DNA of 64,000 bases from Halogranum gelatinilyticum (GTDB taxonomy: Archaea; Halobacteriota; Halobacteria; Halobacteriales; Haloferacaceae): the NCBI RefSeq assembly GCF_900103715.1, contig NZ_FNHL01000001.1, forward strand, positions 601,295-665,294, read 5' to 3'. Positions 24,870 to 28,958 of this stretch are shown here, one piece after another; within the stretch, counting starts at the first letter, position 1; the number at the start of each line of letters is the position of its first letter. The translations under genes were made by a program, and so were the position numbers. The notes under the pieces were generated by a model. It was given only the letters and a program-made list of their open reading frames with translations, had not been told where the DNA came from and searched no databases.

Positions 24870-25241
24870 TCAGTTCCGCCGCAGGAGGAGAACGAGGACG
24901 ACGACGAACGCGACCTGGACCGCCTTGTCCGCGAGACCGAGCGGGCTGAACGACGGCGCGTTCACGACGTACCAGGCGACGATCTGTCCGAGAGTGAACG
25001 GGATTCCGAGGAGGTAGAACAGCCGCCGACGGTAGTCGACGACGATGGCCGCCGCCCCGCCGAGGAAGGCGATTCCGGCCACGATGAAGCTGATGCCGAA
25101 CCCGCTGAGTCCGAACGAGGCCCCCAGTCCGAGATGGAGGACGCCGGTGACGACCGCGAGCACCACCCCGATCCAGTGGAGCGGTGTCATCGATTCCGTG
25201 GCGAGCTGTAGCCCGCTGTTTGCCGTGTTTTGTGTTGCCAT
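24870..25241 (-). CDS. conserved haloarchaeal membrane protein, four helices
   Basis: 123 residues: MATQNTANSG..., then four membrane segments (about 23-40, 44-62, 72-90 and 103-120) with the motif VDYRRRLFYLLGIPFTLGQIVAWYVVNAP between the second and third. I know similar unnamed haloarchaeal proteins but no function. The start at 25241 is preferred over an in-frame extension to 25325 that would add Arg/Gly-rich residues. Minus strand, divergent from the oxidoreductase fusion gene. Confidence 0.75.
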   Translation of the reverse strand: MATQNTANSGLQLATESMTPLHWIGVVLAVVTGVLHLGLGASFGLSGFGISFIVAGIAFLGGAAAIVVDYRRRLFYLLGIPFTLGQIVAWYVVNAPSFSPLGLADKAVQVAFVVVLVLLLRRN

Positions 25242-25428
25242 ACCTCTTCTTTGACCGCCAGCCGCTTCTATCTTCATGCTGCTGGGGACGTGTTCGGCTC
25301 CCGGTGGCGACCCGTTTCGTCTCACTTCGTCTCGAACCGGCCGGGGCCGCCAGTTGGACAGTCCGGCTCCGAGCGGGGGTCGAATCCCGGGAATCCCGGC
25401 ATCGTCGGCCGGAAGACCGAGCTACTTT

Positions 25429-27435
25429 ATGCGTATCCGCTTACGAACAGGGGTGGATTGTGCGTTAGTCGGAGCGGGGAGCATCGCGGAACAGTACGCA
25501 GACGGACTCCGGGAGTCCCCGCTTCGGGTCGTCGCGACCTGTGACCTGGACGAGGACCGCGCGGAGACGCTCGCCGCCCGCGTCGACGACGCCACCGCCT
25601 ACACCGACTTAGAAGAGTTGCTTGCGGCCGAGTCGGTCCCGCTCGTGGTGAATCTGACCAGCCACGGCGCGCACGCCGCTGTCACCCGGACGTGTCTCCG
25701 GGCGGACCGACACGTCTTCTCGGAGAAACCGCTCGCGCTCGACGCGGAGACCGCTGCCGACCTCGTCCAACTGGCCGCCGACCGCGGTCTCGCGCTCGGC
25801 TGCGCGCCGGAGAACCATCTCGCTGACGCCCAGCGACACGCCCGGACGCTCGCCACGGACGGACGGCTCGGGACGGTCCGCTTCGCCAGCGCGACGGCCA
25901 ACGTCGGCCGCGTCCGCGAGTGGCACGACCGGCCGGCGTCGTTTCTCGCCGTCGGCCCGTTGTTCGACGGCGCGGTCTATCCGCTCTCCGTGCTCGTCGC
26001 CTGGTTCGGCCGTGTCGACCGGGTTCGGACGGCCGACGCAATCGACGTCTGGCCCGGCGAGCGACCGGCCGACGCCTCGGCACCGCCACACGTCGAGGCG
26101 ACGCTCGAGTTCGCCGACGGTCCCGTCGTCGCGCTCCGCACGAGCTTCTACGTCGACCACCGGAGCCGCGAGTTCTACGGGCTGGAACTCCACGGCGACG
26201 ACGGGACGCTCTATCTCCGCGACACGGGCGCGCTCGCTGCCGACCGTGACGCCGTGACCGTCCGCGGCGGCGACCGCGACCCGACCGTCGCTCCCCATCC
26301 CCGTCCACGACGCGAACGCCCGCACGCCGCCGGGCCAGCCCGCCTCGCCGAGACGGTCGAGCGTAGCCGCCCGAGCAGGGCGAGTGCCCGCCGTGCGGCA
26401 CACGTGGTCGCGGTCTGTGAGGCCGTCCTGGCCGCCGCAGACGAGTGTGGACCGGTCCCGGTCGAGAACGGACTCGACGACGCGCTGGGGGGACCAGCGT
26501 CCGAGGGGGCGGTCCCGGTCCGCCCGCCGACGGCGACGGAACTCGACGATTGCCAGGCCGCGATGCGGCTCCCGCCGGTCGGGTTCGGCTGCTCGCGCTA
26601 CCGCGGCGACGGCTACGTCGAACCGGCACTCGGCGCGGCCCTCGACGCGGGCTACCGGCTGTTCGACACCGCGGAGCTGTACGGTAACGAGTGGCGACTC
26701 GGCGACCTCCTCGCCGCACCGGGCGCGCCGGACCGGGAGTCTTTGTTCCTCCTCGGCAAGCCCTGGCGGACGAACCACGGTCCCGGCCATCTCAAACGGG
26801 CCTGTGAAGGCTCGCTCGCGGAACTCGGCGTCGACGCCTTCGACTGCTACGCGCTCCACTGGCCCGACGCGTGGGCCCATCGTGGGGAGCTGTCCGAACT
26901 CTCGCAGCTCCCGCTCGCCGAACAGGAGCGTCGGACGTTCCCGACCGACGACGCGGGCGATCCAGTCCGTGCCGACCACTCGCTCGTCGAGACGTGGGAA
27001 CGGATGGAGTCGCTGGTCGAGGAGGGGCTGACACGGACGCTCGGCGTCTGCAACGTGACGCTGCCGCAGCTCTCCCGCCTCGTCGATGCGGCGCGCATCC
27101 CACCGGCACTCGTCCAGATCGAGCGGCATCCCTACCGCCCCCAAACCGACTTGGTCGAGTGGTGTCACGCGCGTGGTATCCGCGTCGTCGCCCACTCCCC
27201 GCTCTCGGCACCGGGGCTGCTGTCCGCCCCGGTCGTCGAGTCGGTCGCGGCGGACGCCGGTGTGACACCGAGCGAGGCGGTGCTCGCGTGGGACGTCGGG
27301 CGGGGCGTGGTCCCCATCCCGTCGACGACCGAGCGGGAGCACGCCGTGTCGAACCTCGCGGCCGCCCGTTGTCGGCTCGACGACAAGGCGATGGCTCGGC
27401 TGGACGGACTCGCCGACCCGGAGTTCGAACGATGA
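25429..27435 (+). CDS. fusion of Gfo/Idh/MocA oxidoreductase and aldo/keto reductase
   Basis: 668 residues joining two NAD(P)-dependent oxidoreductases. Residues 1 to about 360 are Gfo/Idh/MocA: a Rossmann site VDCALVGAGSIAEQYADGL, then HVFSEKPLALD with the EKP catalytic Lys, and a C-terminal beta sheet domain. Residues about 375-668 are an aldo/keto reductase barrel with the tetrad Asp/Tyr in FDTAELYGNE, Lys in LLGKPWR and His in ALHWPD, and the NADPH-binding IPSTTEREH near the end. Sugar or polyol oxidation and reduction in one chain is implied. Its stop overlaps the start of the CDP-alcohol transferase gene (ATGA). Confidence 0.9.
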   Translation: MRIRLRTGVDCALVGAGSIAEQYADGLRESPLRVVATCDLDEDRAETLAARVDDATAYTDLEELLAAESVPLVVNLTSHGAHAAVTRTCLRADRHVFSEKPLALDAETAADLVQLAADRGLALGCAPENHLADAQRHARTLATDGRLGTVRFASATANVGRVREWHDRPASFLAVGPLFDGAVYPLSVLVAWFGRVDRVRTADAIDVWPGERPADASAPPHVEATLEFADGPVVALRTSFYVDHRSREFYGLELHGDDGTLYLRDTGALAADRDAVTVRGGDRDPTVAPHPRPRRERPHAAGPARLAETVERSRPSRASARRAAHVVAVCEAVLAAADECGPVPVENGLDDALGGPASEGAVPVRPPTATELDDCQAAMRLPPVGFGCSRYRGDGYVEPALGAALDAGYRLFDTAELYGNEWRLGDLLAAPGAPDRESLFLLGKPWRTNHGPGHLKRACEGSLAELGVDAFDCYALHWPDAWAHRGELSELSQLPLAEQERRTFPTDDAGDPVRADHSLVETWERMESLVEEGLTRTLGVCNVTLPQLSRLVDAARIPPALVQIERHPYRPQTDLVEWCHARGIRVVAHSPLSAPGLLSAPVVESVAADAGVTPSEAVLAWDVGRGVVPIPSTTEREHAVSNLAAARCRLDDKAMARLDGLADPEFER

Positions 27436-28382
27436 CCGCCGAGTCAGTCCCGGCCGCGCTCCGCGGTCGCTGGTGGCTGACGACGGCCGTCGCCGCCCTC
27501 GCAGCCGTCGCCGTCGCGTCGGCCGCGGCGGATGCATTCTCGCCCACGGCCGGCGTGTCGTGGTTCCTCGTGGCCGCGGTCCCGCTGGGCTACGTCCTGT
27601 GGTTCCTGCGGCAGTCGCTGGGGCTGAACCATCCCCCGGAATCGGCCGACACAGCCGACATAGCCGATGCAACCGACGCAGTGGACGCGACCGACGCAGT
27701 GGACGCGACCGATGTGGCCGACGCGACCGAAGGGACCGAAACGACCGACGCGACCGACACTGCCTCAGACGGTGGGTCGTCGGTGTATCCGACCCTCGGA
27801 CTGGCGAACGGCATCACCATCGGCCGTGGCTGGCTCTACGCTGGCGTGGCAGGCTTCCTCCTCGTCGTCCCCGCCGTCGACAGCCTCTGGCGGTGGCTAC
27901 CAGCGCTTTGGTACGGCGGTGGTGCCGCGCTCGACTGGGTCGACGGCTTCGTCGCCCGTCGGATCGGCCGCCGGACAGTCCTCGGGGAGCGACTCGACAT
28001 GGCGTTCGACACGATGGGCTTTCTGATCGCGCCCGTCGTGGCGGTCGCCTGGGGGGCACTGCCGGTCTGGTATCTCTCCGTGTCGGCGGCGCGGTACTGC
28101 TACCGGTTCGGCTGCTGGCTCCACGAACGCCGTGGCGGGACGCTCGGTGAGCTCCCGGAGAGCCGCGTCAGACGGCCGCTCGCCGGGCTTCAGATGGCAG
28201 TCATCACTGGCGCGCTGCTTCCGGTGACGCCACCGCGTCTCGTCTGGCCGCTCGCGACGCTGGCAGTGGTTCCCTCGCTGGCAGTGTTCTGCCGGGACTT
28301 CCTCTCGGTCACCGGCCGACTCGGCGGGTCGAACACACACGACTCGCCGCCCCTTGGTGAGGAGCGTGAACGAACTTCATGA
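27432..28382 (+). CDS. CDP-alcohol phosphatidyltransferase family membrane enzyme
   Basis: 316 residues. The family signature D-x2-DG-x2-AR-x8-G-x3-D-x3-D is complete: DWVDGFVARRIGRRTVLGERLDMAFD (about 178-203). Two N-terminal membrane helices precede an acidic, Ala/Asp/Thr-rich stretch (about 75-115, repeating TDAVDA), then four or more helices. The enzyme joins a CDP-activated lipid or alcohol to an alcohol acceptor in the membrane, as in archaeal phosphatidylglycerol- or inositol-phosphate-type lipid synthesis. The 4-bp overlap with the upstream oxidoreductase fusion suggests that fusion makes its alcohol substrate. The exact head group is unknown. Confidence 0.88.
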   Translation: MTAESVPAALRGRWWLTTAVAALAAVAVASAAADAFSPTAGVSWFLVAAVPLGYVLWFLRQSLGLNHPPESADTADIADATDAVDATDAVDATDVADATEGTETTDATDTASDGGSSVYPTLGLANGITIGRGWLYAGVAGFLLVVPAVDSLWRWLPALWYGGGAALDWVDGFVARRIGRRTVLGERLDMAFDTMGFLIAPVVAVAWGALPVWYLSVSAARYCYRFGCWLHERRGGTLGELPESRVRRPLAGLQMAVITGALLPVTPPRLVWPLATLAVVPSLAVFCRDFLSVTGRLGGSNTHDSPPLGEERERTS

Positions 28383-28406
28383 AGGGCGCGAGATGACTGA
28401 GCCGTG

Positions 28407-28958
28407 ATGGTCATCACCCACGTCGCCGTCGCGTTGGCGTTCGCGGTGCCGGTCGCGCTGGTCGCCCCCGAGTTCGCGACGGCCGCGGCCGTCGGCGCGA
28501 CCGTCGGCGGGGTCTTTCCGGATCTCGACCTGCTCGTCGGCGAACACCGGCGGACACTGCACTTTCCGGTGGTCGGTCCCCTGCTTGCGGTTCCTGCGGT
28601 AATACTCGCGTTTCTGGTTCCGACGGCGGCGACAGTCGCGCTCGCGCTCGCTCTCGTCGGCTTCGGCGTCCACAGCGCGAGCGACGTGTTGGGTGCGGGT
28701 GAGGAACTCCGGCCGTGGGAACGGACGAACACGGACGCGGTCTACGACCACGTCGCCGGACGCTGGTGGCAGGCGCGGTACGTGATTCCGTACGACGGTT
28801 CGCCGAAGGACCTCCTGTTGGCAGTCGCCGCCAGCCTCCCGGTCCTTCTCGTGTACGAGGGGCCGGTCCGCTGGGGACTCGCCGCGGCTCTCGGTGTCGC
28901 CCTCGTGTACGCCGCCCTTCGACGTCGACTCGTGCCGTACTTCGAGCGAATCCTGTAA
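28407..28958 (+). CDS. YdjM/DUF457-like membrane-bound metal-dependent hydrolase
   Basis: 183 residues, hydrophobic, about four or five helices. Metal-binding pattern: H of VITHVAVAL, D of FPDLDLL, H of EHRRTLH, and H/D of VHSASDVLGAG. These fit the LexA-binding-inner-membrane/YdjM family (DUF457), membrane hydrolases acting on phospholipid-related substrates. It starts 24 nt after the CDP-alcohol transferase; an alternative GTG is one codon upstream (28404). The context suggests a shared pathway with the two genes before it. Confidence 0.8.
   Translation: MVITHVAVALAFAVPVALVAPEFATAAAVGATVGGVFPDLDLLVGEHRRTLHFPVVGPLLAVPAVILAFLVPTAATVALALALVGFGVHSASDVLGAGEELRPWERTNTDAVYDHVAGRWWQARYVIPYDGSPKDLLLAVAASLPVLLVYEGPVRWGLAAALGVALVYAALRRRLVPYFERIL

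What the first reader, a model, noticed from the sequence alone, without database searches (positions are those of the whole stretch)
25429..28958. Oxidoreductase fusion, CDP-alcohol transferase and YdjM hydrolase: a possible new polar-lipid head-group pathway
Seen: a 668-residue Gfo/Idh/MocA-AKR fusion overlaps by 4 bp a complete CDP-alcohol phosphatidyltransferase (D-x2-DG-x2-AR-x8-G-x3-D-x3-D), followed 24 nt later by a membrane metal-dependent hydrolase. Known: this transferase family couples CDP-lipids to an alcohol such as glycerol phosphate, inositol phosphate or serine. Inference: the two oxidoreductase halves interconvert a sugar or polyol that is attached to archaeol, and the hydrolase may remove a phosphate or modify the lipid. 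I know of no described haloarchaeal pathway with this trio.
Basis: partly seen in the sequence, partly recalled or inferred. Interest (0 to 1): 0.62.

Follow-up and report, generated by a model that had tools for sequence, protein, structure and literature searches.

The report
Hidden GTP-derived lipid-linking pathway genes
Two of the three flagged genes are a genuine, conserved pair that belongs to a larger, still unexplained biosynthetic gene cluster shared by salt-loving archaea and some bacteria, which seems to start from GTP and probably ends by attaching its product to a membrane lipid.

Summary
In detail: a Gfo/Idh/MocA–AKR fusion overlaps by 4 bp a complete CDP-alcohol phosphatidyltransferase (CAP), followed by a YdjM-like membrane protein. 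The fusion occurs in 75 of 292 near-complete haloarchaeal genomes, every one of which also has the CAP, within 1.6 kb in 71. YdjM is adjacent in only a few. The main finding lies outside the coordinates. In close relatives the pair heads an operon: GT4 glycosyltransferase | fusion – CAP – GTP cyclohydrolase IIa – Zn-type dehydrogenase – 6-pyruvoyl-tetrahydropterin-synthase homologue (PTPS) – SAM methyltransferase. CAP and PTPS co-occur almost perfectly (162 both, 117 neither, 13 discordant; p about 1e-64). The window genome keeps the missing genes elsewhere. Plasmids of Rhizobium, Agrobacterium, Thiodictyon and Streptomyces carry the same set without the fusion, with RibA and/or RibD. So this is not a simple sugar/polyol head-group trio but part of an uncharacterised cross-domain pathway from GTP. 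I think it most likely makes a methylated, glycosylated pyrimidine or pterin that the CAP attaches to archaeal phospholipid; product and lipid step are inferred. No description was found in the searchable literature.

The parts
24870..25325 (-).
   Evidence: PF24287 E 4e-13; homologues beside or between fusion and CAP in about 17 fusion/CAP loci
25326..25452 (.). Divergent intergenic region; contains CTACTTTATG at 25422-25431, about 25 nt before the likelier GTG start, a possible archaeal TATA element
   Evidence: Sequence; orthologue starts align to residue 9; the promoter reading is inference
25429..27435 (+). Gfo/Idh/MocA - aldo/keto reductase fusion (668 aa from ATG 25429; 660 aa from the likelier GTG 25453)
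   Evidence: orthologues in 75 of 292 genomes, 23 of 76 genera
25456..26463 (+). Gfo/Idh/MocA half: GxG, (E/Q)KP lysine and D180...Y184 (the Lys/Tyr pattern recalled for glucose-fructose oxidoreductase)
   Evidence: Pfam; invariant K100, P101, D180, Y184 in 6 orthologues
26560..27414 (+). Aldo/keto reductase half with tetrad D413-Y418-K444-H477
   Evidence: Pfam and PDB matches to aldehyde/aldose reductases; tetrad invariant in 6 orthologues but degenerate in L071
27432..28382 (+). CDP-alcohol phosphatidyltransferase (CAP, type A), 316 aa, eight long helices in the model
   Evidence: PF01066; conserved catalytic motif; AlphaFold pLDDT 85, nearest PDB fold phosphatidylglycerol-phosphate synthase 7drk, TM 0.69 by target length
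27639..27770 (+). Asp/Thr/Ala repeat linker (TDAVDATDAVDATDV...) between the two extra N-terminal helices and the catalytic core
   Evidence: Sequence; low-confidence segment of the model
27933..28010 (+). CAP catalytic motif D-x2-DG-x2-AR-x8-G-x3-D-x3-D
28404..28958 (+). YdjM-like small membrane protein, putative metal-dependent hydrolase (ATG at 28407 also possible)
   Evidence: PF04307 below cut-off; orthologues by the CAP in G027, G008, G083, G183 and others; optional member

Best explanation
The fusion and CAP are components of a pathway that starts from GTP. SHOWN by gene order and co-occurrence: they belong with a GTP cyclohydrolase (IIa in archaea; RibA-type II, often with a RibD-type reductase, in bacteria), a PTPS homologue, a BchC-like zinc-type dehydrogenase, a GT4 glycosyltransferase and a SAM methyltransferase. 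INFERRED: (1) the cyclohydrolase opens GTP to a formamido/diamino-pyrimidine ribotide, the first step of archaeal riboflavin and F420 synthesis; (2) the T-fold PTPS homologue and the dehydrogenase remodel this into a pterin- or pyrimidine-type alcohol; (3) it is methylated and glycosylated; (4) in haloarchaea the fusion adjusts a sugar or polyol part by oxidation at the Gfo site and reduction at the AKR site, for example an epimerisation; (5) the CAP transfers a phospho-lipid group from CDP-archaeol to a hydroxyl of the product, giving a lipid-anchored conjugate; (6) PAP2, YdjM or a similar membrane protein removes a phosphate. In the window genome the type-A pair stands apart from the remaining genes, which lie elsewhere in the genome together with a second, type-B CAP. 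Confidence is about 0.95 for pathway membership, 0.8 for a GTP-derived precursor and 0.5 for lipid attachment.
For: All 75 fusion-bearing genomes have the CAP and the PTPS (p 6e-23 and 9e-22); CAP lies within 1.6 kb of the fusion in 71 and PTPS within 20 kb in 52; CAP/PTPS co-occurrence [[162,4],[9,117]], p 1e-64. In a separate set of 40 relatives, CAP versus PTPS, dehydrogenase and methyltransferase p about 1e-7 to 1e-8. The two closest relatives sampled (fusion 72% and 68% identical) carry GT4 | fusion-CAP-GCHIIa-ADH-PTPS-MT (L182, L183), as do Haloarcula halophila and L088; the window CAP is sister to the L088 CAP (99/96). Window genome: GCHIIa-ADH-PTPS-GT4 on C9, MT next to CAP-B on C1. 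Bacterial sets with CAP: Rhizobium, Streptomyces, Agrobacterium, Thiodictyon, with homologous ADH, PTPS, GT, MT and CAP. Eight of the ten plasmid homologues of the CAP lie near a dehydrogenase of this family on the same plasmid, and a ninth (Halobellus limi) shares its plasmid with one. Fold nearest to CDP-diacylglycerol enzymes.
Against: No product, substrate or mutant data exist for these pathway genes that I could find. Lipid attachment rests on family membership only; the same fold includes DIPPS, which joins two small alcohols (4mnd). The GTP cyclohydrolase next to the cluster is the only copy in many genomes, and its deletion in Haloferax volcanii causes riboflavin auxotrophy (PMC8305020), so its position may reflect a shared precursor rather than a dedicated enzyme. 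Fusions without nearby cluster genes exist (L048, L051/L095, L099, L103), and the window's own copy is separated from the rest.
Confidence: 0.5

Rival explanations
1. The CAP does not act on a lipid. Like IPCT-DIPPS it joins a CDP-activated small alcohol to the GTP-derived product, giving a soluble charged phosphodiester (from memory, charged pterins called halopterins were reported from halobacteria in the 1980s with unknown genes).
For: The same fold includes DIPPS (4mnd); the other enzymes of the cluster are soluble types; Palleronia and Rhodobacteraceae SC52 clusters show no CAP nearby, so the core product can exist without it.
Against: The best structural matches are CDP-diacylglycerol users, PgsA, PIPS and PSS; no cytidylyltransferase was annotated in the clusters read; PAP2, LPG-synthase-TM/flippase-like and oligosaccharide-flippase genes lie near several clusters, which suits a membrane product.
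Confidence: 0.27
2. An ordinary phospholipid enzyme: the CAP is the haloarchaeal archaetidylglycerophosphate (or archaetidylinositol-phosphate) synthase and the methyltransferase next to it makes PGP-Me.
For: CAP and methyltransferase are adjacent in many loci; the archaetidylglycerophosphate synthase of haloarchaea is not settled (PMC8305020); nearest fold is PgsA.
Against: 126 of 292 near-complete haloarchaeal genomes have no match at E 1e-10, whereas PG and PGP-Me are typical haloarchaeal lipids (PMC8305020); the CAP tracks PTPS instead; scores against PgsA, AIPS and AssA models are far below their cut-offs; it does not explain the bacterial clusters.
Confidence: 0.07
3. The cluster serves coenzyme F420 or riboflavin synthesis; the PTPS is the subfamily said (unpublished) to act in archaeal F420 synthesis.
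For: The GTP cyclohydrolase IIa and RibD steps are shared with riboflavin/F420; PMC5041015 mentions PTPS-IV in F420 synthesis as unpublished.
Against: CofD is present in all 30 good genomes tested, including those without the PTPS, so F420 does not need it; a CAP, glycosyltransferase and methyltransferase have no known place in F420 or riboflavin synthesis.
Confidence: 0.06
4. A glycan or S-layer pathway: CAP, GT4, flippase-like and sulfatase-family genes build a lipid-linked saccharide and the PTPS/cyclohydrolase genes are bystanders.
For: GT4 is nearly always present; sulfatase-family, LPG-synthase-TM and flippase genes lie near some clusters.
Against: The PTPS and dehydrogenase co-occur almost perfectly with the CAP and are linked to it in two domains of life, so they are not bystanders.
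Confidence: 0.08
5. The window's own unit is a decaying remnant: the functional pathway of this genome is the type-B set elsewhere in the genome, and the type-A fusion-CAP-YdjM genes no longer do anything essential.
For: The window genome is the only one of the listed 292-genome matches with two copies of this CAP; its type-A locus lacks GCHIIa, ADH, PTPS and MT that its sister loci keep.
Against: All three ORFs are intact, with catalytic residues, 4-bp overlap and close spacing; some genomes run with an unlinked type-A pair as their only CAP (for example G007).
Confidence: 0.1

Closest known systems
Streptomyces coelicolor SCO6650 (PDB 3d7j) and its neighbourhood, an uncharacterised PTPS-homologue cluster
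   Same: The Streptomyces fungicidicus cluster PTPS (L075) matches 3d7j over its whole length, E 3e-79; that cluster has CAP, ADH, PTPS, GT4, MT, creatininase and RibA. From memory, SCO6650 was reported not to catalyse the PTPS reaction and its pathway is unknown.
   Different: The haloarchaeal PTPS keeps an H-x-H pair lost in the bacterial ones; haloarchaea use GTP cyclohydrolase IIa rather than RibA and add the fusion, DUF7475 and YdjM/PAP2.
Haloarchaeal CDP-archaeol 1-archaetidyltransferases (assA; aisA/pgsA2 of the hisC-adk2 operon; pgsA1, pgsA4), PMC8305020
   Same: Same superfamily (PF01066) and catalytic motif; two of them are present in this genome.
   Different: The window CAP is outside the named subfamilies, is patchily distributed and is tied to the PTPS cluster. 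Which H. volcanii gene corresponds to type B was not tested.
Phosphatidylglycerol-phosphate synthase PgsA (7drk)
   Same: Nearest solved fold, Foldseek probability 1.0, TM 0.69 by target length, 18% identity.
   Different: Two extra N-terminal helices and an acidic linker; scores 22 bits against a PgsA cut-off of 109.
Archaeal riboflavin/F420 early steps (ArfA GTP cyclohydrolase IIa, ArfB creatininase-type deformylase, ArfC/RibD reductase)
   Same: GTP cyclohydrolase IIa, creatininase-family and RibD-family genes occur in or beside the clusters.
   Different: The later enzymes (PTPS, ADH, GT4, MT, CAP) have no known place in either pathway.
Gfo/Idh/MocA oxidoreductases and NADP-dependent aldo/keto reductases
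   Same: Both halves have the family folds and catalytic residues.
   Different: The two are fused in one chain and tied to a CAP; the bacterial relatives found match the Gfo half only.

Membership tests
CDP-alcohol phosphatidyltransferase superfamily (PF01066) | Motif D-x2-DG-x2-AR-x8-G-x3-D-x3-D | tested here: met
   Exact at residues 168-193; catalytic residues invariant or nearly so in the alignments
CDP-alcohol phosphatidyltransferase superfamily (PF01066) | Score above Pfam gathering cut-off and family fold | tested here: met
   52.5 bits against 22; model pLDDT 85, nearest PDB 7drk
CDP-alcohol phosphatidyltransferase superfamily (PF01066) | Transfer of a CDP-linked alcohol or lipid to a hydroxyl | not testable with these tools
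   Needs enzyme assay
Archaetidylinositol-phosphate, archaetidylserine or archaetidylglycerophosphate synthase | NCBIfam equivalog/exception cut-off | tested here: not met
   17, 20 and 22.5 bits (the last against the bacterial pgsA model) versus cut-offs 180, 200 and 109
Gfo/Idh/MocA oxidoreductase | N-terminal Rossmann GxGxxA, (E/Q)KP lysine, C-terminal domain | tested here: met
   PF01408 and PF22725 above cut-offs; residues invariant
Aldo/keto reductase | Catalytic tetrad Asp-Tyr-Lys-His and (beta/alpha)8 domain | tested here: met
   PF00248 144.8 bits; D413 Y418 K444 H477. Degenerate in L071
YdjM family (PF04307) membrane metal-dependent hydrolase | Pfam gathering score | tested here: inconclusive
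   20 bits against 29; orthologue 23.6 bits; conserved H/D motifs; model too poor for a fold match
QueD / PTPS-I or PTPS-III (partner gene Y, not in the window) | CxxxHGH or ExxHGH motif and QueD cut-off | tested here: not met
   Haloarchaeal motif E-G-E/D-x-H-S-H and bacterial motif ending H-G-A; 43 bits against 89
SCO6650-type (RibA/ArfA-PTPS-ADH-GT4-MT-CAP) cluster | Homologous ADH, PTPS, GT4, MT and CAP encoded together | tested here: met
   Met at relatives' loci and in Rhizobium, Streptomyces, Agrobacterium and Thiodictyon; in the window genome met genome-wide, not at one locus
SCO6650-type (RibA/ArfA-PTPS-ADH-GT4-MT-CAP) cluster | Product or reaction | not testable with these tools
   None described that I could find

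The most novel reading that the evidence does not exclude
Haloarchaea and several bacterial groups make a previously unseen membrane lipid whose head group is a methylated, glycosylated pterin or ribityl-pyrimidine derived from GTP: a lipid-anchored heterocycle that could act as a membrane redox or light-absorbing cofactor. The window's CAP is an enzyme that attaches it, and the Gfo-AKR fusion tailors its sugar in haloarchaea. (Rhizobium, Agrobacterium and Thiodictyon clusters also hold a cytochrome b gene.)
Probability: 0.3. Interest if true: 0.88.

Novelty: new variant of a known kind. Interest (0 to 1): 0.6.

Why it matters
More than half of sampled haloarchaeal genomes (166 of 292 CAP, 171 of 292 PTPS), and plasmids of rhizobia, a purple sulfur bacterium and Streptomyces, carry this gene set, yet no function was found. 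It combines the first steps of riboflavin/F420 synthesis with a phospholipid head-group transferase, which would link coenzyme and membrane-lipid chemistry. It would give a pathway context to an orphan crystal structure (SCO6650, 3d7j), a function to a CAP subfamily outside the named haloarchaeal ones, and a defined gene list for a direct deletion and LC-MS test in genetically tractable haloarchaea.

Tried and rejected
(1) Trio as the pathway: rejected; YdjM is adjacent to CAP in only about nine of the 292 genomes, while family members exist in 278. (2) CAP as housekeeping archaetidylserine/inositol synthase: rejected by NCBIfam cut-offs and by finding those genes elsewhere in the genome. (3) F420 role of the PTPS: disfavoured by CofD in all good genomes. 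(4) YdjM and the small membrane protein found at the same place in other loci as one family: hhalign aligns only the first 14 residues, probability 1.5%. (5) Fold of YdjM: model pLDDT 62, no significant PDB match. (6) phmmer of the full CAP against PDB hit only the acidic repeat. (7) Literature: searches found no paper on the cluster; Phillips 2012 on COG0720 is not held. (10) Streptomyces anthocyanicus PTPS hit has no cluster around it.
Full report
WHAT IS THERE. The three ORFs exist as described. The fusion is a Gfo/Idh/MocA domain followed by a complete aldo/keto reductase; both carry their catalytic residues, invariant in six orthologues (K100, D180, Y184; D413, Y418, K444, H477). Its stop overlaps the start of the CAP by 4 bp (ATGA). 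The CAP has the exact superfamily motif and a well-modelled fold (pLDDT 85) whose nearest solved structures are CDP-diacylglycerol enzymes: PgsA 7drk, then PIP synthases and PS synthase, with DIPPS among them. The third gene is a YdjM-like membrane protein, below the Pfam cut-off. Orthologue starts suggest GTG 25453 rather than ATG 25429 as the fusion start (inference).

CONSERVATION OF THE PAIR. In 292 haloarchaeal genomes at least 90% complete, the fusion (E at most 1e-50) occurs in 75, in 23 of 76 genera. All 75 have the CAP (166 of 292 overall); it lies within 1.6 kb of the fusion in 71, within 10 kb in two more, and elsewhere or on another contig in two. Sixty-four bacterial loci holding a homologue of the Gfo half have no CAP or PTPS nearby. 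On the CAP tree the fusion label needs two changes against a shuffled mean of 12.9.

THE LARGER CLUSTER. The closest relatives of the window's fusion (G252, 72%; G242, 68%) carry in a row a divergent GT4 glycosyltransferase, then fusion, CAP, GTP cyclohydrolase IIa, zinc-type dehydrogenase, PTPS homologue and SAM methyltransferase. The same order, or rearrangements of it, is seen in MAG QH_7_65_31, Haloarcula halophila, Halorussus marinus, Haloplanus ruber, Halocatena marina, Haloarcula marismortui pNG700, Natronomonas aquatica, Halovenus and Halorubrum. DUF7475, which in the window is divergently transcribed just upstream of the fusion (24870-25325 -), recurs in most of these loci. PAP2 phosphatases and small membrane proteins recur at the CAP or PTPS end.

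CO-OCCURRENCE. CAP against PTPS over 292 genomes: both 162, CAP only 4, PTPS only 9, neither 117 (p 1e-64). In the first set of 40 relatives, CAP against PTPS [[26,0],[2,12]], with similar results for the dehydrogenase and methyltransferase. Genomes are related, so these p-values overstate independence, but the pattern spans many genera and is repeated by physical linkage. In the 292-genome search only the window genome is listed with more than one match to this CAP.

THE WINDOW GENOME. GTP cyclohydrolase IIa, dehydrogenase, PTPS and GT4 are adjacent on contig C9 (48.9-52.3 kb); a methyltransferase and a second CAP (type B) are adjacent on C1 near 1.21 Mb; a second GTP cyclohydrolase IIa is on C2. 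So the genome has the full gene set, but the window's type-A pair is apart from it. Two further CAPs are the standard archaetidylserine synthase and an archaetidylinositol-phosphate-synthase-like enzyme beside an adenylate-kinase-like gene.

BACTERIAL COUNTERPARTS. Plasmids of Rhizobium sp. SL42, Agrobacterium tumefaciens, Candidatus Thiodictyon syntrophicum and Streptomyces fungicidicus carry CAP, dehydrogenase, PTPS, GT4 and methyltransferase, with RibA and/or RibD; Methylosinus, Palleronia and Rhodobacteraceae SC52 carry sets without a nearby CAP. The dehydrogenases, PTPSs, GTs, MTs and CAPs are homologous across the domains, the CAPs, PTPSs and methyltransferases weakly. The Streptomyces PTPS matches the solved but uncharacterised SCO6650 (3d7j). 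From memory, not checked here, SCO6650 lacks PTPS activity and a paralogue SCO6655 of GTP cyclohydrolase II makes a formamidopyrimidine; the creatininase-family gene in the S. fungicidicus cluster would fit an ArfB-like deformylase.

MECHANISM. Shown: gene linkage, gene families and catalytic residues. Inferred: GTP is opened to a pyrimidine ribotide; the PTPS homologue, whose motif differs from QueD, PTPS-II and PTPS-III (motifs in PMC5041015), and the dehydrogenase reshape it; it is methylated and glycosylated; the CAP joins it to archaetidyl phosphate; a membrane phosphatase trims it. The fusion is a haloarchaeal addition: the bacterial clusters read here lack it, and its AKR half is degenerate in Haloarcula halophila, with none detected by Pfam in L052, so its role is probably tailoring of a sugar or polyol part. 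The lipid step is the least certain.

CAUTION. The cyclohydrolase may be only the shared riboflavin enzyme: it is single-copy in many genomes and its deletion in H. volcanii causes riboflavin auxotrophy (PMC8305020). F420 as the end product is disfavoured because CofD is universal in good genomes while the PTPS is not. PGP-Me synthesis is disfavoured because the CAP is missing from 126 of 292 genomes.

VERDICT. Observation confirmed; interpretation partly supported. The pair is one end of an uncharacterised, cross-domain pathway rather than a self-contained polar-lipid trio.

Noticed in passing
24870-25325 (-): DUF7475 membrane protein, conserved beside or between fusion and CAP in most fusion loci; a family of unknown function that can now be tied to this cluster.
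   Followed up: yes
27639-27770: Asp/Thr/Ala repeat (TDAVDATDAVDATDV) inserted between two extra N-terminal helices and the CAP core; related acidic inserts in L047 and L066 CAPs.
   Followed up: partly
L071:5715-7454 and L052:8103-9902: Fusion homologues with no AKR domain detected by Pfam; in L071 the AKR tetrad is lost while the Gfo half is intact, suggesting the AKR activity is dispensable or the half is now structural.
   Followed up: partly
G000:C1:1212235-1212777 versus window CAP: The window genome is the only one listed in the 292-genome search with two matches to this CAP (type A and type B), hinting at a second acquisition or a merger of two cluster versions.
   Followed up: partly
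L069, L070, L074, L075 PTPS genes: Bacterial cluster PTPS proteins end the usual H-G-H motif as H-G-A, whereas haloarchaeal ones read H-S-H; the two groups may differ in metal binding.
   Followed up: no
L067:10996-11865 and 7 other loci: A sulfatase-superfamily-like gene (weak Pfam match), 72-81% identical between loci, sits between fusion and dehydrogenase in Haloarcula/Halorubrum/Natronomonas-type clusters; other sulfatase genes lie near Rhizobium and Agrobacterium clusters.
   Followed up: partly
L169, L170, L074: A cytochrome b gene lies next to the RibD-family gene in three bacterial clusters, a possible hint of a redox role.
   Followed up: no
G161, G199, G155, G129, G108, G236: In one genus a YdjM-family gene lies within 1 kb of the PTPS rather than beside the CAP.
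   Followed up: no
L051 / L095 (MAG A07HR60), L048, L099, L103: Fusion genes with no other cluster gene detected on the fetched stretch.
   Followed up: no
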